This document shows positions 57,889-64,000 of a stretch of DNA of 64,000 bases, piece after piece. Source of the stretch: Bacteroidia bacterium Ga0077558 (lineage in GTDB: Bacteria > Bacteroidota > Bacteroidia > Chitinophagales > Chitinophagaceae). The stretch lies in assembly GCA_001464625.1 (NCBI GenBank), contig LNFJ01000039.1, positions 1 through 64,000 on the forward strand. The letters run 5' to 3'. Below the pieces are notes generated by a model. The model did not search any database. It saw nothing but the letters and a program-made list of their open reading frames with translations, and was not told the origin of the DNA. Numbering within the stretch: position 1 is the first letter of the stretch; each line of letters begins with the position of its first letter. Made by a program: the position numbers and the translations under genes.

Positions 57889-59343
57889 ATGTTCGAACAA
57901 ACCTTCAAGAATATTGATGATATACTCCACAAAGATGCCGGTTGCAGTAGCGAGTTAGATTATGTAGAACAAACCAGTTGGGTATTGTTCTTAAAGTACC
58001 TGAGTGATTTAGAAGAAGATCGCCGCACCAAAGCAGAACTCGTTGGTAAAGAGTATGAATACCTCATCGGCAAACAATACCGCTGGGAAGTGCTGGCTCC
58101 CAAAACGAAAGACGGAAAGATTGACCACCAAAAAGCATTGACGGGTGATGACCTGAAAGATTTTGTTGATCTCAAACTCTTTCCTTACTTAAAAAAATTC
58201 AGAACCGATGCAGTCTCTGCTGATACATTAGAATATAAAATCGGCGAAATATTCAGCGAACTGAAAAACAGGATGCAAAGCGGTTACAACCTGCGGGAAG
58301 TAATCAACCGCATTGATGAACTGCGTTTCCGCACCTCGGCAGAAAAACATGAGATGAGCCATCTCTACGAATCCAAGATACAGAACATGGGCAATGCCGG
58401 CCGCAATGGTGGTGAATACTATACACCCCGCCCATTGATAAGAACGATTGTAAAAGTAGTAGCACCGGAACTGGGACAAAAAATTTATGATGGGGCTGTT
58501 GGTTCTGCCGGTTTCTTATGCGAAGCATTTGAATATTTAAAAGAACAAAACAAAAACCGCAGTACGGCACAGGATAAAATATTACAGACAAAAACATTTT
58601 ACGGCAAAGAAAAAAAATCATTGGCCTACATTATTGGCACCATGAATATGATTTTGCATGGCGTGGAAGCTCCCAATATTATACATACCAATACACTGGC
58701 CGAAAACCTGGCCGATATACAGGAGAAAGACCGCTATGATATTGTATTGGCCAATCCACCATTTGGCGGAAAAGAAAGAGCGGAAGTGCAACAAAACTTT
58801 CCAATAAAAACAGGTGAAACCGCTTCTTTATTCTTACAGCATTTTATTAAAATATTAAAAGCAGGTGGCAAAGCCGGTGTGGTAATTAAAAATACTTTCT
58901 TAAGTAATACCGATAATGCATCTGTTGCCTTGCGCAAACAACTATTAGAAAACTGTAACCTGCATACGGTATTAGATTTACCCGGCGGCACATTTACAGG
59001 TGCCGGTGTAAAAACAGTGGTATTGTTTTTTGATAAAGGAGCACCAACAAAAAAAGTATGGTTTTACCAATTAAACCTTGATAGAAATCTTGGTAAAACA
59101 AATGCACTGAGCGAAAAAGATTTGGCAGATTTTGTTGCCTTACAAAAAACAAAAGCCGATAGTGAAAACAGCTGGACCATTAAAATAAAAGACATTGACC
59201 CAACTACTTTTGACCTGAGTGCAAAAAACCCCAATAAAAAAGAAGAAGCTGCATTGCGCCAACCGGAAGAAATTCTTGAAGAGATGAAAGCATTAGATGA
59301 GGAAAGTGCGGATATTCTAAAATCAATTTTGGATCTGATATGA
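57889..59343 (+). CDS. hsdM: Type I restriction-modification DNA methyltransferase subunit
   Basis: A 484-residue N6-adenine methyltransferase. N-terminal helical HsdM_N domain (LDYVEQTSWVLFLKYLSDLE), SAM-binding motif I-like VGSAGFLCEAFEYLKEQ, catalytic motif IV in DIVLANPPFGGKERAEVQQN (N-P-P-F) near residue 288, and later HTVLDLPGGTFTGAGVKTVV. It methylates the target site and is the modifying core of the R2M2S complex. Its stop overlaps the hsdS ATG by 4 bp. It is the first gene of the defence locus, after the repeat-rich spacer. Confidence 0.96.
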   Translation: MFEQTFKNIDDILHKDAGCSSELDYVEQTSWVLFLKYLSDLEEDRRTKAELVGKEYEYLIGKQYRWEVLAPKTKDGKIDHQKALTGDDLKDFVDLKLFPYLKKFRTDAVSADTLEYKIGEIFSELKNRMQSGYNLREVINRIDELRFRTSAEKHEMSHLYESKIQNMGNAGRNGGEYYTPRPLIRTIVKVVAPELGQKIYDGAVGSAGFLCEAFEYLKEQNKNRSTAQDKILQTKTFYGKEKKSLAYIIGTMNMILHGVEAPNIIHTNTLAENLADIQEKDRYDIVLANPPFGGKERAEVQQNFPIKTGETASLFLQHFIKILKAGGKAGVVIKNTFLSNTDNASVALRKQLLENCNLHTVLDLPGGTFTGAGVKTVVLFFDKGAPTKKVWFYQLNLDRNLGKTNALSEKDLADFVALQKTKADSENSWTIKIKDIDPTTFDLSAKNPNKKEEAALRQPEEILEEMKALDEESADILKSILDLI

Positions 59344-60560
59344 AACAAGGTTGGAAAATAGTGACTTTAGGTGATGTTTGTAAAACAACTCAGGGTATTC
59401 AAATATCAAAAAGTAACCAAGAAAACAAACTGCTTCATAATTATAAGCGGTATCTCTATATATCTGATTTTAAGAATGAAAAGAATCTAAAATATGTTGA
59501 AAATATTTATCCTGAGAAAATTGTAACTGAAAAAGATCTAATAGTTGTAAATACTGGTGCATCTGCAGGAGATATATTTAGAGGCATTGATGGAATTTTA
59601 AGTAACAACCTTTTTAAAGTTTCTTTTGATGATAAAATAATTGATCCTGATTTTATATTCTATTTTGTAAATTCTGATATTTTCAAGAATCACCAAAGTT
59701 TTATTATGCGAGGTACAGCAAATCCTCATATGGGCCATGAAAATTTTAAATCCACTCCTTTTAAATATCCAAATATTAATGAACAAAAAAGCATAGTGGC
59801 CATCTTAGATGAAGTCTTTGCCTTCATAGCTAAAGCAAAAGCCAACGCCGAGCAAAACCTAAACAATGCCAAAGAGCTTTTTGAAAGTTATTTGCAATCG
59901 GTGTTTGAAAATAAAGGAGAGGATTGGGAAGAGAAGACAATTCAAGAAATTACAAAAGTGGTAAATGGTTATGCTTTTTCCAGTAAAGATTTTAGGTCAA
60001 CTAATACAATCAAATCAATCAAAATAACAAATGTTGGCGTAAAAGAATTTGTGGAGGAAACAGATAATTTTTTACCAGAAAAATATAAAACAACGCTAAA
60101 GGAATATCAGGTTAAAGAAGGAAACATCGTAATTGCGTTAACGAGAACAATAATTGCAGCAGGTTTAAAAGTTGCTGTGGTTCCTAAAAGTTATGATGGA
60201 GCATTAATTAATCAACGAGTTGCTGCATTAGTTCCAAATGAAAAGTTAGTAAATCAAAGATATTTATATAATTACCTAACAACTGCTGGTGTAACAAAAT
60301 ATGTATTGTCGAATGTTAATACACTAATGCAGCCTAATCTTTCAATCAATGATTTAAAAAATATGCTTGTTCCTTGCCCGCCACTAGAGGAACAACAAGC
60401 CATCGTCCGCAACCTCAATGCCCTATCCGCCGAAACCAATAAATTAGAAACCATCTACCAGCAAAAAATAAATGATTTGGAAGAATTAAAAAAATCGGTA
60501 TTGCAAAAGGCGTTTAGAGGGGAATTGAAGACTGAAAAATCGGTTTTTGCATCAAATTAA
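59340..60560 (+). CDS. hsdS: Type I restriction-modification specificity subunit
   Basis: A 406-residue protein with two target-recognition domains, each followed by a conserved helical spacer: TRD1 from KQGWKIVTLGDVCKTTQGIQ, spacer NEQKSIVAILDEVFAFIAKA with SYLQSVFE; TRD2 from GEDWEEKTIQEITKVVNGYA, spacer PLEEQQAIVRNLNALSAETN with LKKSVLQKAFRGEL. This is the layout of a full-length HsdS that recognises a split asymmetric site. The two TRDs differ clearly in sequence and the central and C-terminal repeats are the likely points of recombination. It overlaps hsdM by 4 bp. Confidence 0.94.
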   Translation: MKQGWKIVTLGDVCKTTQGIQISKSNQENKLLHNYKRYLYISDFKNEKNLKYVENIYPEKIVTEKDLIVVNTGASAGDIFRGIDGILSNNLFKVSFDDKIIDPDFIFYFVNSDIFKNHQSFIMRGTANPHMGHENFKSTPFKYPNINEQKSIVAILDEVFAFIAKAKANAEQNLNNAKELFESYLQSVFENKGEDWEEKTIQEITKVVNGYAFSSKDFRSTNTIKSIKITNVGVKEFVEETDNFLPEKYKTTLKEYQVKEGNIVIALTRTIIAAGLKVAVVPKSYDGALINQRVAALVPNEKLVNQRYLYNYLTTAGVTKYVLSNVNTLMQPNLSINDLKNMLVPCPPLEEQQAIVRNLNALSAETNKLETIYQQKINDLEELKKSVLQKAFRGELKTEKSVFASN

Positions 60561-60683
60561 TAATCATTTGCCTGAAAATCATTTCATTATCTCACCAACT
60601 TGATTTTACCCATGCTCATGAGCCAAATGTATTAGATTTGTAAAAAATAAACCTATAGGTTGATTATTAAATAGAAACACTGT

Positions 60684-61223
60684 ATGTTTGCCTTATCTGA
60701 AATCGTCGAAGAAAAACTGTTTGCCCTTAAAGAGGGTGGCCGTTTAGACGCTTTTCATCAGTGTTTTGAAAATTGGCAGGATGTAGAATATGTATACAAT
60801 TTTTTTAAAAGCCGCCCAGAGGCTTTGCTTTATTATGGAGTGGACCATAGGACAGCCGTGCGGTTAATACTCAGAGAAAGCGAACAGTTTTTTGATGATA
60901 TTTTAAATATTGCAGAAGAAGAAAATGCTACATCATTAGATAAAATTATTTTTCAACCATTACATAACGGCGATGATTTTGATTTGCCCATTATAGAAAC
61001 CAAAGCGTATGGTAAAGAGTCTGGCAGAAGTTTTCTCCGTCTATATGCTATACGTCTCAGTGATGGCGCATATATTATTGTCGGCGGCCTTATAAAAACC
61101 ACAGAAGCATTACAGGATTGTGAAGAAGGGAAAGCAGTGTTAAAAAAATTGAAGGAGATAGCAGATATCCTTAGAAAAAGCGAAATGTTTGACACATTTG
61201 ATATTGGCATCTTAGTTGTCTAA
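60684..61223 (+). CDS. Putative toxin, RelE/HigB-like C-terminal domain
   Basis: A 179-residue protein of unrecognised family. The C-terminal half resembles RelE-fold toxins: FLRLYAIRLSDGAYIIVGG, IKTTEAL, then KAVLKKLKEIADILRKSE, in which a short strand set and a final helix follow the basic/aromatic pattern. The N-terminal 100 residues (LDAFHQCFENWQDVEYVYNF, VDHRTAVRLILRESEQFFDD) are an extra part not present in simple RelE. It is followed by an XRE gene 25 nt later and a SecB-like gene, within the type I locus. Toxin role is inferred from fold resemblance and operon order. Confidence 0.5.
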   Translation: MFALSEIVEEKLFALKEGGRLDAFHQCFENWQDVEYVYNFFKSRPEALLYYGVDHRTAVRLILRESEQFFDDILNIAEEENATSLDKIIFQPLHNGDDFDLPIIETKAYGKESGRSFLRLYAIRLSDGAYIIVGGLIKTTEALQDCEEGKAVLKKLKEIADILRKSEMFDTFDIGILVV

Positions 61224-61248
61224 ATGTATACAATAGAACTTGATAATT

Positions 61249-61692
61249 ATGTCTACTAAAAACAAACTGGAAGAAGTATTTGGAAAGATCGAAGCCAGTA
61301 AATGGAATGAAGCTGCACACAAGCAGAAAGAGGCTAAGACCTGGCTTCATTATTCACAGGAAGTAGCACTTGCCCTTTTAGAATTGATGGATCAGAGGAA
61401 AATCACTCAAAAAGCGTTGGCAGAAAAAATGAATGTGTCTCCGCAACTCATCAATAAATGGGTAAAGGGAAAAGAGAATTTCACTTTTGAAACCGTTGCC
61501 AGACTTGAAGAAGTGTTTGGTGTTAAACTTCTTAAAGTTGAATTGAAGTCAAACAAAGTTTCAATACCAGTAGAAATTTTAAAGGTTTACATAGAAGAGT
61601 ATATACGACCTAGCTTGAATTTGTGGGCAAATAAACCCCTGGCCAGTAAGATTATAAAGATCCCTAAAACGGAATACGCAAAAGCGAATTAA
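61249..61692 (+). CDS. XRE-family HTH antitoxin-like regulator
   Basis: A 147-residue protein. An N-terminal helix (KNKLEEVFGKIEASKWNEAA) precedes the Cro/C1 domain (residues about 45-95: VALALLELMDQRKITQKALA, MNVSPQLINKWVKGKENFTF, ARLEEVFGVKLLKVEL). A C-terminal extension of about 45 residues holds Trp and hydrophobic residues (VYIEEYIRPSLNLWANKPLA); in TAC antitoxins an extension of this kind is the chaperone-binding site. I chose ATG 61249 over the TTG at 61240. The SecB-like gene starts 1 nt after its stop, so translation is coupled. Confidence 0.75.
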   Translation: MSTKNKLEEVFGKIEASKWNEAAHKQKEAKTWLHYSQEVALALLELMDQRKITQKALAEKMNVSPQLINKWVKGKENFTFETVARLEEVFGVKLLKVELKSNKVSIPVEILKVYIEEYIRPSLNLWANKPLASKIIKIPKTEYAKAN

Positions 61693-61693
61693 C

Positions 61694-62131
61694 ATGCCTG
61701 AAAAAAAAGACCTGAATATTAAATTTCGCATTCAGCGAATAGAAACTCTGCAATTCGCCATTTTACAAGAAGAAGTAAGCCGGGAAAAGCTTGCATATTC
61801 TACCAATTTTGGTTATGGAATTGATCCTGATTCATTCATTATACGTTCATCTTTCCGATACGAAATGTTATGTGAGGATAAGTCATGCCTCATAATAGAA
61901 GTAGCAATAGATTTTGAAATTGAGAAAGATTGTTTCGAGAAACAATTCAAAAAGGATGGCAAGCTTTTAATCGAAAAAAAATTTGCTTCCCATCTTGCCG
62001 CAGTGGTTGTAGGGACGTCACGAGGGATTCTTCATGAAAAGACGAACGGGAAATCTATCAATTCGTTTCCTATTCCAACAATTAATGTGTTCAACAAGAT
62101 AACCGAAGACATTTCATTCGAAGTCAGGTAA
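61694..62131 (+). CDS. SecB-like chaperone (proposed)
   Basis: A 145-residue beta-rich protein. It starts with a Lys-rich strand (LNIKFRIQRIETLQFAIL), then TNFGYGIDPDSFIIRSSFRY, EMLCEDKSCLIIEVAIDFEI, a helix (HLAAVVVGTSRGILHEKT) and a C-terminal NSFPIPTINVFNKITEDISF. Order and the Arg-Gly then Pro-rich end recall the SecB fold (four strands, two helices, C-terminal P-x-I). I know no direct name for it. In known TAC operons a SecB-like gene stands after the antitoxin, as here. A stop-start gap of 1 nt links it to the XRE gene, and hsdR begins 41 nt later. Confidence 0.5.
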   Translation: MPEKKDLNIKFRIQRIETLQFAILQEEVSREKLAYSTNFGYGIDPDSFIIRSSFRYEMLCEDKSCLIIEVAIDFEIEKDCFEKQFKKDGKLLIEKKFASHLAAVVVGTSRGILHEKTNGKSINSFPIPTINVFNKITEDISFEVR

Positions 62132-62172
62132 GTTTGCATTTTCTCTATTCTATTTTTATCTTTCATCCATAC

Positions 62173-64000
62173 ATGAACGAAGCCGAAACAAGAGCCGAAC
62201 TTATAGACCCCCAACTAAAAGAAAATGGCTGGGATGGTAAAGCTAACTCCGAAGTAAAAGTACACCGGGAGTATATTATATCTGCTGGTAAAATAAAGGC
62301 AACTGGGGGCAGACAAAAACCAGTGATTGCGGATTATGTATTAACCTATAAGGGGAAAAAGCTGGCGATAGTAGAAGCAAAAGCTGATGAGTGTGAAGTA
62401 GGCGAAGGTGTCGCACAGGCAAAAGATTATGCCACTAAATTACAAATAGAAGATACTTATGCAGCCAATGGCAGGGAGATTTATCATATAGATATGGATT
62501 CGGCCAGCGAATGCTTGGTTAATAATTTTCATTCTCCCGAAGAATTATACAACAAGCAATTTCCCTCACCCAACAAATGGAAAGAAGAATTTAGCGAATC
62601 GCCTTACGAAACAAAAGGCGGCACCATGGGTGGCCGCTTCTATCAGGAGATAGCAGTAGACAAAACAATGGATGCTATTGCAGAAAAGAAAAATAGAGTA
62701 TTGCTTACATTGGCAACCGGCACTGGTAAAACATTTATCGCATTTCAAATCGCCTGGAAGTTATTTCAGACACGATGGAATTTACAATACGATGGAAAGA
62801 GAAGGCCGAGAATATTATTTCTCGCAGATAGAAATATTTTAGCCGACCAGGCTTTTAATGCATTTTCTGCGTTTCCTGAAGATGCGTTGGTAAGAATTAG
62901 CCCGAAGGAAATAAGAAAGAAAGGCAGTGTGCCAACAAATGGCAGTATTTTCTTTACCATCTTTCAAACCTTTATGAGTGGCACAGACAAAGAAGGAAAT
63001 CCTGTTCCTTACTTTGGCGAATATCCCAAAGACTATTTCGATTTAATATTTATAGATGAGTGTCACCGGGGCGGTGCAAACGATGAAGGTAATTGGCGGG
63101 GTATTCTCGAATATTTTTCTCCCGCCGTACAGATAGGCTTAACAGCCACACCCAAAAGAAAGGAGAATGCAGATACCTATAAATATTTTGGTAATCCTGT
63201 TTATATCTATTCGCTGAAAGAAGGCATTGATGATGGCTATTTAACTCCGTTCAAAGTAAAAAGAATAACTACTTCGCTGGATGAATATACTTACCAGGCC
63301 GACGACAATGTAGTAGAAGGAGAAATAGAAGAAGGCAAAACCTATAAAGAAAGCGACTTCAATAAAATCATCGAGATAAAAGAAAGAGAAGCCAAAAGAG
63401 TAAAAATCTTTATGGACCTGATAGACCAGAATGAAAAAACACTGGTCTTTTGTGCCACACAAGAACATGCCGCTGCCATCAGGGATTTGATCAATCAATA
63501 TAAAAAAAGTAAAGAACCGGATTATTGCGTAAGAGTTACCGCTAATGATGGAGAGTTGGGGGAGCAATACTTGAGAGAGTTTCAGGATAACGAGAAAAGT
63601 GTACCTACTATTCTTACCACCTCTCAAAAATTGTCAACCGGCGTAGATGCAAGAAATATCAGGAATATTATTTTGTTGCGTCCGGTAAACAACATCATCG
63701 AGTTTAAACAAATTGTGGGAAGAGGTACCAGGTTATTTGACGATAAGAACTTTTTTACCATTTATGATTTTGTAAATGCCAGCGAACGGTTTAAAGACCC
63801 GGAGTGGGATGGAGAACCAATTGAACCGGTAGAGATTGACCCAAGACCTAAAAAAGAAACCCCAACAGATACAGAACCTTACGAAGATGACCAACCGCCC
63901 TACCAAAAGGAAAGCAAGATTAAAGTAAAGCTGGCCAACGGAAAGGAGCATTTTATAGAACATGTTATCACTACTACGTTCATTGGTCCAGATGGTAAAC
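62173..64000 (+). CDS. hsdR: Type I restriction enzyme R subunit, N-terminal part (3' end outside window)
   Basis: The frame is open from ATG 62173 to the end of the window (609 codons). N-terminal nuclease: DPQLKENGWDG and VIADYVLTYKGKKLAIVEAK, giving D-x(n)-ExK with Glu near residue 67. Then helicase motifs: Walker A LATGTGKTFIAFQ (about 177-190), DECHRGG with IGLTATPKR, FCATQEHAAAIRDL, and motif VI QIVGRGTRLF (about 514-523). The protein translocates DNA and cuts it away from unmodified sites. It is the last gene of the interrupted type I operon. No frameshift was seen in the visible part. The C-terminal HsdM-binding domain is missing only because of the window edge. Confidence 0.93.
   Translation, partial: MNEAETRAELIDPQLKENGWDGKANSEVKVHREYIISAGKIKATGGRQKPVIADYVLTYKGKKLAIVEAKADECEVGEGVAQAKDYATKLQIEDTYAANGREIYHIDMDSASECLVNNFHSPEELYNKQFPSPNKWKEEFSESPYETKGGTMGGRFYQEIAVDKTMDAIAEKKNRVLLTLATGTGKTFIAFQIAWKLFQTRWNLQYDGKRRPRILFLADRNILADQAFNAFSAFPEDALVRISPKEIRKKGSVPTNGSIFFTIFQTFMSGTDKEGNPVPYFGEYPKDYFDLIFIDECHRGGANDEGNWRGILEYFSPAVQIGLTATPKRKENADTYKYFGNPVYIYSLKEGIDDGYLTPFKVKRITTSLDEYTYQADDNVVEGEIEEGKTYKESDFNKIIEIKEREAKRVKIFMDLIDQNEKTLVFCATQEHAAAIRDLINQYKKSKEPDYCVRVTANDGELGEQYLREFQDNEKSVPTILTTSQKLSTGVDARNIRNIILLRPVNNIIEFKQIVGRGTRLFDDKNFFTIYDFVNASERFKDPEWDGEPIEPVEIDPRPKKETPTDTEPYEDDQPPYQKESKIKVKLANGKEHFIEHVITTTFIGPDGK

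What the first reader, a model, noticed from the sequence alone, without database searches (positions are those of the whole stretch)
60684..62131. Putative toxin-antitoxin-SecB-like chaperone module inserted in a type I restriction locus
Seen: three genes lie between hsdS and hsdR, with gaps of 25 nt and 1 nt. They encode a RelE/HigB-like protein with a long N-terminal part, an XRE protein with a hydrophobic C-terminal extension, and a beta-rich 145-residue protein with SecB-like order of elements. Established: TAC systems (for example Rv1955-Rv1956-Rv1957 of M. tuberculosis) need a SecB-like chaperone to protect an antitoxin through its C-terminal extension. Inference: this is a Bacteroidetes TAC variant that may link loss of the R-M locus to toxicity or be released by phage interference.
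Basis: partly seen in the sequence, partly recalled or inferred. Interest (0 to 1): 0.78.

Follow-up and report, generated by a model that had tools for sequence, protein, structure and literature searches.

The report
Chaperone-guarded toxin–antitoxin inside restriction locus
Three neighbouring genes in a Bacteroidia genome look like a growth-stopping toxin, its fragile antidote and a dedicated chaperone that keeps the antidote alive, a set found across Bacteroidota and repeatedly inside a DNA-restriction defence locus, which makes it a likely second line of defence against phages.

Summary
Between hsdS and hsdR lie three co-directional genes (gaps 25 and 1 nt): P1 60684-61223, P2 61249-61692, P3 61694-62131. 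Pfam and NCBIfam name neither P1 nor P3; PADLOC lists relatives of all three as an undescribed candidate, PDC-M64. Structure models give the folds: P3 is SecB-like (nearest: SecB, Z 10.1, and Rv1957, 8.6), P1 RelE/HigB-like with conserved basic residues at catalytic positions. The gene order recurs: P2 in 119, P1 in 108 of 123 P3 loci. Nineteen antitoxins from 17 chaperone-less loci are a natural control: 0 of 19 have an aromatic-rich tail, against 103 of 110 with chaperone, and 4 of 19 end in A/G/S against 89 of 110. A palindromic operator precedes the toxin gene in 66 of 102 loci; the window copy equals the consensus. Of 88 loci with enough flank, 13 lie between hsdS and hsdR. [quoted passage not shown] Toxicity, chaperone dependence and defence are untested. 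New variant of a known kind.

The parts
57889..59343 (+). hsdM, type I DNA methyltransferase
   Evidence: Pfam N6_Mtase E 1.6e-63 and HsdM_N E 4e-10; the only HsdM_N match in the genome as held
59340..60560 (+). hsdS, specificity subunit, complete (406 aa)
   Evidence: Pfam Methylase_S E 5e-34
60633..60640 (+). TAGATTTG, matches TAnnTTTG (recalled as the Bacteroidota -7 promoter element); possible promoter of the module itself
   Evidence: TAnnTTTG in the 50 nt before the operator in 13 of 65 loci, shuffled mean 2.8, largest 7
60646..60665 (+). AATAAACCTATAGGTTGATT, near-perfect palindrome (core AACCTATAGGTT), candidate operator of the XRE antitoxin
   Evidence: only site in the window at up to 3 mismatches (core); equals the column consensus of 65 loci; at most 3 mismatches near the toxin start in 66 of 102 loci, 0 of 618 other ORFs
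60684..61223 (+). P1, toxin candidate, RelE/HigB (BECR) fold, 179 aa
   Evidence: AlphaFold pLDDT 89.9; Foldseek top 6af4 E 2.9e-3; VIA Z 9.4 to 6af4 and 7.3 to HigB1 7nbu; 30 of the 32 highest-ranked entries are toxins or toxin-antitoxin complexes by title
61002..61097 (+). stretch with K107 (61002-61004), R119 (61038-61040) and K138 (61095-61097): candidate catalytic residues at the end of beta2, start of beta3 and just after beta4
   Evidence: R119 and K138 invariant, K107 in at least 90% of 70 sequences; strand positions; compare RelE K54/R61/R81 and S. pneumoniae HigB R68/R73/K92 (PMC9098466, passages)
61249..61692 (+). P2, XRE antitoxin candidate, 147 aa (an in-frame TTG at 61240 would give 150 aa)
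   Evidence: HTH_3 E 1.2e-13; PDC-M64C E 1.6e-16
61540..61689 (+). C-terminal extension of P2 (50 aa), candidate chaperone-addiction region (ChAD)
   Evidence: median 55 aa in 110 antitoxins with chaperone, 103 of 110 with 3 or more aromatics; 0 of 19 without chaperone
61672..61689 (+). terminal EYAKAN of P2, similar to the genome's own ssrA tag end QYAMAA (3 of 6), candidate ClpXP degron
   Evidence: tmRNA tag GNTQYAMAA; 3 or more of 6 identical in 13 of 110 chaperone-linked antitoxins, 1 of 913 other ORFs, 0 of 19 chaperone-less
61694..62131 (+). P3, SecB-like chaperone candidate, 145 aa
   Evidence: AlphaFold pLDDT 90.3; Foldseek top 5mtw (Rv1957) E 2.1e-4 and SecB 1fx3/1qyn; VIA Z 10.1, rmsd 3.0-3.2 over 119-122 residues
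62021..62044 (+). RGILHEKT signature of P3 (R110, G111, L113, K116, T117 invariant); falls opposite a gap in a weak alignment to SecB
   Evidence: 79-sequence alignment; (hhalign, probability 3.8%)
62134..64000 (+). hsdR, EcoAI/FtnUII-type restriction subunit (start may be ATG 62174; continues to 64500 on the contig)
   Evidence: NCBIfam NF046051 E 2e-206

Best explanation
A tripartite toxin-antitoxin-chaperone (TAC) module, carried as defence cargo at the hsdS-hsdR junction of a type I R-M system. P1 is a RelE/HigB-type toxin, most likely a ribosome-dependent mRNA endonuclease (fold by model and conserved basic residues shown; activity inferred). P2 is the XRE antitoxin. It binds P1 and represses the operon from the palindrome at 60646-60665 (operator conservation shown; binding inferred). 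P2 also ends in a variable aromatic tail with a ClpX-type end, so on its own it would aggregate or be degraded (inferred from the tail and its absence in chaperone-less relatives). P3, a SecB-fold chaperone, binds the tail, hides the degron and keeps P2 able to block P1 (fold by model; binding inferred from Rv1957 and CmdC). When P3 is drawn away, most plausibly by a newly made phage structural protein as in CmdTAC, P2 is degraded and P1 stops translation, a suicidal second line behind the non-suicidal R-M system (inferred).
For: P3 fold SecB and P1 fold RelE/HigB. Basic residues at RelE-type catalytic positions. Conserved three-gene order. The antitoxin tail is tied to the chaperone: 103 of 110 against 0 of 19 with 3 or more aromatics; the chaperone changes at least 9 times on the toxin tree, and in 5 pairs on supported branches the aromatic tail goes the same way in 4.9 and the other way in 0.0 on average. 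ClpX-like ends (89 of 110 against 4 of 19) and likeness to the host ssrA tag. Operator. A relative (L237) has a PF02556/CmdC-type SecB as its third gene. Matches to PADLOC candidate PDC-M64, and to PD-T4-9_C (CmdC) in 8 of 79 P3 sequences (best E 2.3e-5). Other probable defence cargo at the same junction in R-M relatives.
Against: No toxicity, binding or phage data. No Pfam SecB match in the 11 P3 sequences scanned and none among the NCBIfam matches of 79; hhalign to a small SecB alignment is only suggestive (probability 3.8%, E 0.011). P1's Foldseek match is modest (E 2.9e-3). The window's own antitoxin ends in Asn, not A/G/S. With fewer than 6 pairs the tree-corrected sign test cannot reach 0.05. 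In 9 distant P3 loci and 2 close ones (L044, L086) no P1 relative was recognised. One chaperone-less locus (L181) ends 303 nt after P2, and its genome carries a P3 elsewhere. Only 4 of 97 relatives, the window's genome included, carry a P3 by single-protein search.
Confidence: 0.82

Rival explanations
1. A selfish addiction module: an ordinary toxin-antitoxin set that stabilises the R-M locus or a mobile element (post-segregational killing), with the chaperone only as a folding aid and no role in sensing phage.
For: RelE/HigB fold toxin with XRE antitoxin. Chaperone-less copies exist, one locus with three tandem pairs (L210). P1 relatives occur on 3 plasmid records. One full copy lies on a viral contig beside tail-like and relaxase-like genes (L238, my reading of the translations). 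The window's R-M is the only HsdM_N match in its genome as held.
Against: A chaperone and an aromatic tail are not needed for addiction, yet they change together on the toxin tree. Flanking genes of ten loci checked are diverse, from restriction subunits to a histidyl-tRNA synthetase and an esterase-like protein. Characterised TAC systems CmdTAC and MqsRAC defend against phage (PMC9519451 and PMC11618068, passages).
Confidence: 0.25
2. The module guards the R-M system: phage anti-restriction proteins or loss of Hsd subunits trigger P1, so restriction and suicide are wired together.
For: 16 of 120 loci have hsdS upstream and hsdR downstream on the same strand within 4.5 kb, with a fewest-change count of 7 on the P3 tree. 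HsdM lies in the flanks of 14 of 52 loci against 0.21 expected. DarTG2 sits at the same junction in E. coli (PMC12255303, passages).
Against: 75 of 88 loci with at least 2.5 kb on both sides do not show that arrangement. The junction carries unrelated cargo in R-M relatives: STAND, Schlafen-AlbA and PD-(D/E)XK genes. The module has its own conserved operator, found nowhere else in the window. Hitch-hiking in a defence hotspot explains this as well.
Confidence: 0.12
3. P1 is not a toxin but a regulator or RNA-binding protein of RelE fold, and the operon is a stress-responsive transcription unit.
For: No Pfam or NCBIfam toxin family was seen for P1 (one search shows 25 of 48 weak families, none of RelE type); toxicity was not tested. 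Some HigB toxins showed no toxicity (M. tuberculosis HigB2 and HigB3, PMC9098466, passages).
Against: The three basic catalytic positions are conserved. A neutralising antitoxin with a ClpX-like tail makes little sense without a toxin.
Confidence: 0.07

Closest known systems
TAC of M. tuberculosis, HigB1-HigA1-SecB(TA) (Rv1955-Rv1956-Rv1957)
   Same: Gene order; RelE/HigB fold (Z 7.3 to 7nbu); antitoxin with C-terminal extension; SecB-fold chaperone (5mtw is the Foldseek top hit); ClpX-type antitoxin end (Val-Ala in HigA1, PMC8165232, passages).
   Different: P3 is 10-16% identical to Rv1957 over the fold, not matched by Pfam SecB, with its own RG-[VI]-L-H-x-K-T-E motif; toxin 179 aa with a helical insertion; Bacteroidota; chaperone-less sisters; in some loci nested in type I R-M.
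CmdTAC (PD-T4-9) of E. coli
   Same: Toxin, antitoxin and SecB-like chaperone; antitoxin ending LAA for ClpXP (PMC11618068, passages); weak profile match to PD-T4-9_C in 8 of 79 P3 sequences.
   Different: CmdT is an ADP-ribosyltransferase; P1 models as RelE/HigB. CmdA is described there as two helices and an unstructured tail, without an XRE domain.
PADLOC candidate PDC-M64 (A/B/C)
   Same: Profiles match P1 (E 4.3e-6), P2 (1.6e-16) and P3 (2.2e-8); all 79 P3 sequences match PDC-M64C; 57 of 70 P1 sequences match PDC-M64B PDLC04756.
   Different: Listed as a candidate without description; no paper held names it. I recall that such candidates come from a scan for genes embedded in defence loci (not verified).
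DarTG2 embedded in a type I R-M system of E. coli (RptR island)
   Same: A toxin-antitoxin pair between hsdS and hsdR, a site described as a potential recombination hotspot (PMC12255303, passages).
   Different: Different toxin, no chaperone, different regulator.

Membership tests
TAC (toxin-antitoxin-chaperone) systems | Type II toxin and antitoxin genes in one operon with a SecB-like chaperone gene | tested here: met
   gaps 25 and 1 nt; order conserved in relatives: P2 in 119 and P1 in 108 of 123 loci; co-transcription itself not tested
TAC (toxin-antitoxin-chaperone) systems | Third protein has the SecB fold | tested here: met
   AlphaFold pLDDT 90.3; VIA Z 10.1 SecB, 8.6 Rv1957, 8.5 and 8.1 two streptococcal proteins of unknown function (2o2a, 2hng), then 7.8 SecB again and 5.3 for a beta-lactamase; Foldseek
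TAC (toxin-antitoxin-chaperone) systems | Antitoxin bears a C-terminal extension (ChAD) that chaperone-independent relatives lack | tested here: met
   3 or more aromatics in the extension: 103 of 110 with chaperone, 0 of 19 without; same direction in 4.9 of 5 supported tree pairs. Some chaperone-less antitoxins do have a long tail (7 of 19 at 38 aa or more), but lysine/serine-rich
TAC (toxin-antitoxin-chaperone) systems | Antitoxin ends in a ClpX-type degron | tested here: inconclusive
   family level yes (89 of 110 end in A/G/S against 4 of 19); the window protein ends EYAKAN, 3 of 6 identical to its ssrA tag end but with Asn last
TAC (toxin-antitoxin-chaperone) systems | Toxin arrests growth and is neutralised only when the chaperone is present | not testable with these tools
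   needs expression assays
HigBA / RelE-ParE superfamily | Toxin has the RelE/HigB (BECR) fold | tested here: met
   VIA Z 9.4 to 6af4 over 115 residues; 30 of the 32 highest-ranked entries are toxins or toxin-antitoxin complexes by title, the others Cami1 (8phj) and HP0894 (1z8m); Foldseek E 2.9e-3
HigBA / RelE-ParE superfamily | Match to a curated toxin family profile | tested here: not met
   none for the window protein in Pfam or NCBIfam; none among the 25 of 48 weak Pfam families shown for 70 sequences
HigBA / RelE-ParE superfamily | Ribosome-dependent mRNA cleavage | not testable with these tools
   three basic residues at catalytic positions conserved
Canonical SecB (PF02556) | Match to Pfam SecB | tested here: not met
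   no match for the window protein or 10 relatives; no PF02556 match at E 0.001 in the genome
Canonical SecB (PF02556) | Acidic SecA-binding cluster | not tested
   no residue-level structural alignment was at hand
CmdTAC | ADP-ribosyltransferase toxin | tested here: not met
   P1 model matches RelE/HigB structures instead
PDC-M64 (PADLOC candidate) | Matches to its protein profiles | tested here: met
   all three proteins, E 4.3e-6, 1.6e-16 and 2.2e-8

The most novel reading that the evidence does not exclude
A Bacteroidota TAC clade in which the antitoxin's chaperone-dependent tail evolved into an imitation of the ssrA degradation tag. Every molecule made is a ready ClpXP substrate unless the dedicated SecB-like chaperone masks it. 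The module would therefore read two infection signals at once, chaperone titration by phage proteins and ClpXP availability, and its recurrent placement between hsdS and hsdR would give a graded response: restriction first, arrest of translation second. Chaperone addiction would have been gained or lost several times over an unchanged toxin-antitoxin-operator core.
Probability: 0.3. Interest if true: 0.78.

Novelty: new variant of a known kind. Interest (0 to 1): 0.62.

Why it matters
It gives an undescribed candidate defence family (PDC-M64) a concrete mechanism that can be tested, and it takes chaperone-dependent toxin-antitoxin systems into Bacteroidota, in a genome where no Pfam SecB was found. 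The chaperone-less sisters with the same toxin family, antitoxin core and operator are a natural experiment on how chaperone addiction arises, a point addressed so far, in what I read, by grafting ChAD tails in the laboratory (PMC5105189, passages). The recurrent hsdS-hsdR position adds a case of suicide systems nested in restriction systems.

Tried and rejected
Sequence-only routes to SecB failed: Pfam and NCBIfam scans, PDB profile searches, and hhalign against E. coli SecB, against the L237 protein and against a small SecB alignment (the last is collinear but weak). PDB profile search with P1 gave nothing convincing. A single-protein genome scan with P3 found nothing; an alignment of 11 did. 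The window's P3 found nothing on plasmids; a P1 relative found 3 plasmid records (not followed). One viral contig carries a P3.

Generic inverted-repeat scoring upstream of P1 was barely above shuffles (8 of 102 at p 0.05 or less). Its listing showed a repeated motif, which one search then scored against 618 other ORFs. The motif was taken from these loci (it is the window's own copy), so the 66 of 102 is not independent of its choice; the control ORFs were scored with the same motif and window. For chaperone-less loci the best site anywhere in the locus was taken, not only upstream of P1.

A first regex for the HTH end failed on 30 of 110 antitoxins, and 60% clustering left 2 chaperone-less representatives because four clusters mix both kinds; I replaced both by an alignment-based cut and a tree. 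Dropped before those counts: L041, L194, L204 (fused antitoxin-chaperone ORF), L198 and L213 (decayed copy), L237 (other SecB type); antitoxins with identical last 30 residues were counted once. Of the 19 chaperone-less antitoxins, three come from one locus (L189/L210) and two (L234, L235) have only toxin fragments and were not in the tree.

The comparison of nearest R-M relatives was meant to show an empty hsdS-hsdR junction; instead it showed other cargo. Two streptococcal proteins of unknown function (2o2a, 2hng) rank among the SecB matches of P3; whether they are SecB relatives was not tested. The BFVD search gave two phage proteins named SecB at E 1.2e-4 and 5.2e-4, not followed.

Literature: no held paper names PDC-M64. 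Searches for TAC with phage defence, with ClpXP degrons and with Bacteroid/Flavobacteri showed no Bacteroidota TAC of this kind in the listings, of which I saw the first 20; most subscription papers are not held, so this is not proof of absence.
Full report
WHAT IS THERE. On the + strand, hsdM (57889-59343), hsdS (59340-60560), P1 (60684-61223, 179 aa), P2 (61249-61692, 147 aa), P3 (61694-62131, 145 aa) and hsdR (from 62134, or ATG 62174) follow each other. Pfam and NCBIfam identify the Hsd proteins (hsdR as EcoAI/FtnUII type) and P2 as an XRE helix-turn-helix protein, and give nothing significant for P1 or P3. PADLOC profiles of an undescribed candidate, PDC-M64, match all three. The genome's class is very probably Bacteroidia: three genomes that the tool calls 'same class' carry contigs of the same length as named Bacteroidia/Bacteroidetes records with the same match (G397:C24 and JAUIKF010000017.1, G212:C76 and JAIBAH010000003.1, G312:C18 and MEPB01000018.1).

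FOLDS. With 78 relatives aligned P3 models at pLDDT 90.3 as four long strands and a long helix. Foldseek's best PDB matches are Rv1957 with its antitoxin peptide (5mtw, E 2.1e-4) and SecB (1fx3, 1qyn). VIA-align gives Z 10.1 to SecB (rmsd 3.0-3.2, 119-122 residues), 8.6 to 5mtw, 8.5 and 8.1 to two streptococcal proteins of unknown function (2o2a, 2hng), 7.8 to another SecB entry, and then 5.3 to a beta-lactamase. TM-scores of the nine best Foldseek rows are moderate (0.42-0.55), so this is a distant relative. P1 models at pLDDT 89.9. Its best matches are a S. pneumoniae toxin-antitoxin structure (6af4, which I recall as HigBA; Foldseek E 2.9e-3; Z 9.4) and M. tuberculosis HigB1 (7nbu, Z 7.3). 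Of the 32 highest-ranked entries of the VIA list, 30 are toxins or toxin-antitoxin complexes by title; the other two are Cami1 (8phj) and HP0894 (1z8m), which I recall as RelE-fold too. R119 and K138 are invariant and K107 is in at least 90% of 70 sequences. They lie at the end of beta2, the start of beta3 and just after beta4, the order described for RelE K54/R61/R81 and S. pneumoniae HigB R68/R73/K92 (PMC9098466, passages). This correspondence is by secondary-structure position, not by a residue-level superposition.

CONSERVATION. A P3 relative occurs in 4 of 97 close genomes (single protein) and in 36 of 395 genomes drawn from the class (alignment), the window's own included in both. In genome contigs 155 stretches encode one and 80 were kept; the record titles are nearly all Bacteroidota, with a Sulfurimonas MAG (L126), a Chlorobiota MAG (L128) and a Stygiobacter (L130) among them. 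Across the 123 loci read (three contigs twice) the P2 family is adjacent in 119 and the P1 family upstream in 108. Of the 15 P1 misses four are at contig ends (L100, L103, L113, L137), nine are distant copies whose toxin, if any, the profile does not recognise, and two close ones (L044, L086) are unexplained. L237 carries a related toxin and antitoxin with a third gene that is a Pfam SecB (E 9.7e-7, above cut-off) and matches PD-T4-9_C. So the toxin-antitoxin core is found with SecB-type partners of two kinds.

NATURAL CONTROL FOR CHAPERONE ADDICTION. Searches with P1 found P1-P2 pairs without P3. After removing copies with identical ends, fused or decayed copies and L237, 110 antitoxins have a chaperone and 19, from 17 loci, do not. 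Extension after the HTH: median 55 aa against 34; 3 or more aromatics in 103 of 110 against 0 of 19; last residue A, G or S in 89 of 110 against 4 of 19 (Fisher p 2.6e-17 and 6.7e-7, not corrected for kinship). On a toxin tree (125 rows bearing both traits) the chaperone changes at least 9 times; in the 5 pairs on supported branches the aromatic tail goes the same way in 4.9 and the other way in 0.0 on average, the A/G/S end 4.2 and 0.1; with 5 pairs the sign test cannot reach 0.05. Caveats: the contig of L181 ends 303 nt after P2, and its genome (G433) has a P3 elsewhere; whether the other chaperone-less genomes hold one elsewhere was not tabulated. Published TAC antitoxins carry such tails, which chaperone-independent antitoxins lack (PMC5105189, passages), and end in ClpX signals (HigA1 Val-Ala, PMC8165232, passages; [quoted passage not shown]

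SSRA LIKENESS. The genome's tmRNA encodes the tag GNTQYAMAA. At least 3 of its last 6 residues are matched in place by 13 of 110 chaperone-linked antitoxins, 1 of 913 other ORFs, 0 of 19 chaperone-less antitoxins, 0 of 101 P1 and 0 of 116 P3. The window's EYAKAN scores 3 but ends in Asn, so for the window itself the degron is a guess. The tags of the other genomes were not looked up.

OPERATOR. AATAAACCTATAGGTTGATT lies at 60646-60665 and nowhere else in the window at up to 3 mismatches (core). Elsewhere in the genome there are only 3-mismatch matches, at two places, as many as for the reversed control. Within -150 to +60 of the toxin start it is present with at most 3 mismatches in 66 of 102 loci, mostly 22 nt before the ATG (38 nt in the window), against 0 of 618 other ORFs (fewest mismatches 5) and 0 of 121 P3 starts. 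It equals the column consensus of 65 loci. It is also present at up to 3 mismatches in 14 of the 17 chaperone-less loci, so it belongs to the toxin-antitoxin core. I read it as the operator of the XRE antitoxin. A TAnnTTTG element lies just upstream in the window.

R-M CONTEXT. Of 120 distinct loci, 16 have hsdS upstream and hsdR downstream on the same strand within 4.5 kb: 11 of 52 genome-contig loci with at least 2.5 kb on both sides, 2 of 36 such genome-search loci (one is the window), and 3 with a shorter flank. Some carry a further gene between. HsdM lies in the flanks of 14 of those 52 loci, against 0.21 expected from 58 HsdM_N matches in about 207 Mb (the two counts use different detectors, phmmer and Pfam). 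The fewest-change count for embedding on the P3 tree is 7. The host systems are of two kinds: EcoR124-type (L125, L097) and EcoEI/EcoAI-type (the window, and L104, whose contig ends upstream). In the nearest R-M relatives the same junction holds other genes: a 909-aa DUF4062/nSTAND protein (PDC-S60 by profile), a Schlafen-AlbA protein, a PD-(D/E)XK protein. So the junction looks like an exchange site and the TAC like one of its cargoes. DarTG2 at this junction in E. coli is a published parallel (PMC12255303, passages).

MECHANISM. Shown by sequence or model: folds, gene order, tail-chaperone linkage, operator conservation. Inferred: toxicity, ribosome-dependent mRNA cleavage, repression, chaperone binding, ClpXP degradation, phage trigger. 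For the trigger the best precedent is CmdTAC, where T4 capsid protein takes the chaperone and CmdA is then degraded by ClpP (PMC11618068, passages); a HigBAC set is described as activated by the lambda major tail protein (PMC11980606, passages).

NOVELTY. The kind (TAC) is known and the family is listed by PADLOC as a candidate. I found no paper in the held library that describes it. I therefore call it a new variant: a Bacteroidota TAC clade with a SecB-fold chaperone outside Pfam SecB, a HigB-like toxin for which I saw no Pfam toxin family, chaperone-less sisters and a conserved operator.

Noticed in passing
L041 5936-7693: Antitoxin and chaperone are one 291-aa ORF, and the toxin gene is split into two ORFs (129 and 65 aa); possibly a decayed copy left with a fused antidote.
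   Followed up: partly
L210 5960-9007: Three tandem toxin-antitoxin pairs of this family without any chaperone gene, with near-identical antitoxin ends.
   Followed up: partly
L237 1381-2653: Related toxin and antitoxin followed by a Pfam SecB / PD-T4-9_C-type chaperone instead of the P3 family; antitoxin ends YRLAG.
   Followed up: partly
L262 4389-7118; L263 4459-6150; L265 8074-8493: The hsdS-hsdR junction of the nearest R-M relatives carries other probable defence cargo (DUF4062/nSTAND PDC-S60, Schlafen-AlbA, PD-(D/E)XK).
   Followed up: partly
L238 5074-6426: A full toxin-antitoxin-chaperone set on a viral contig, downstream of what read like phage-tail and relaxase genes (my reading of the translations).
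   Followed up: no
window 62021-62044 (P3 R110-T117): Conserved RG-[VI]-L-[HF]-x-K-T-E motif at the end of the long helix, opposite a gap in the weak SecB alignment; role unknown, perhaps tail or toxin contact.
   Followed up: no
L213 6383-7777: A decayed copy in a genome that has another copy elsewhere (L053): short antitoxin ORF and chaperone reading frame interrupted.
   Followed up: no
BFVD A0A8S5P8E8, A0A8S5U130: Phage proteins named SecB match the P3 fold; could be prophage TAC parts or counter-defence chaperones.
   Followed up: no
plasmids NZ_AP025293.1, NZ_CP103198.1, CP103229.1: P1 relatives on plasmids of Persicobacter, Phocaeicola and Bacteroides; neighbours not read.
   Followed up: no
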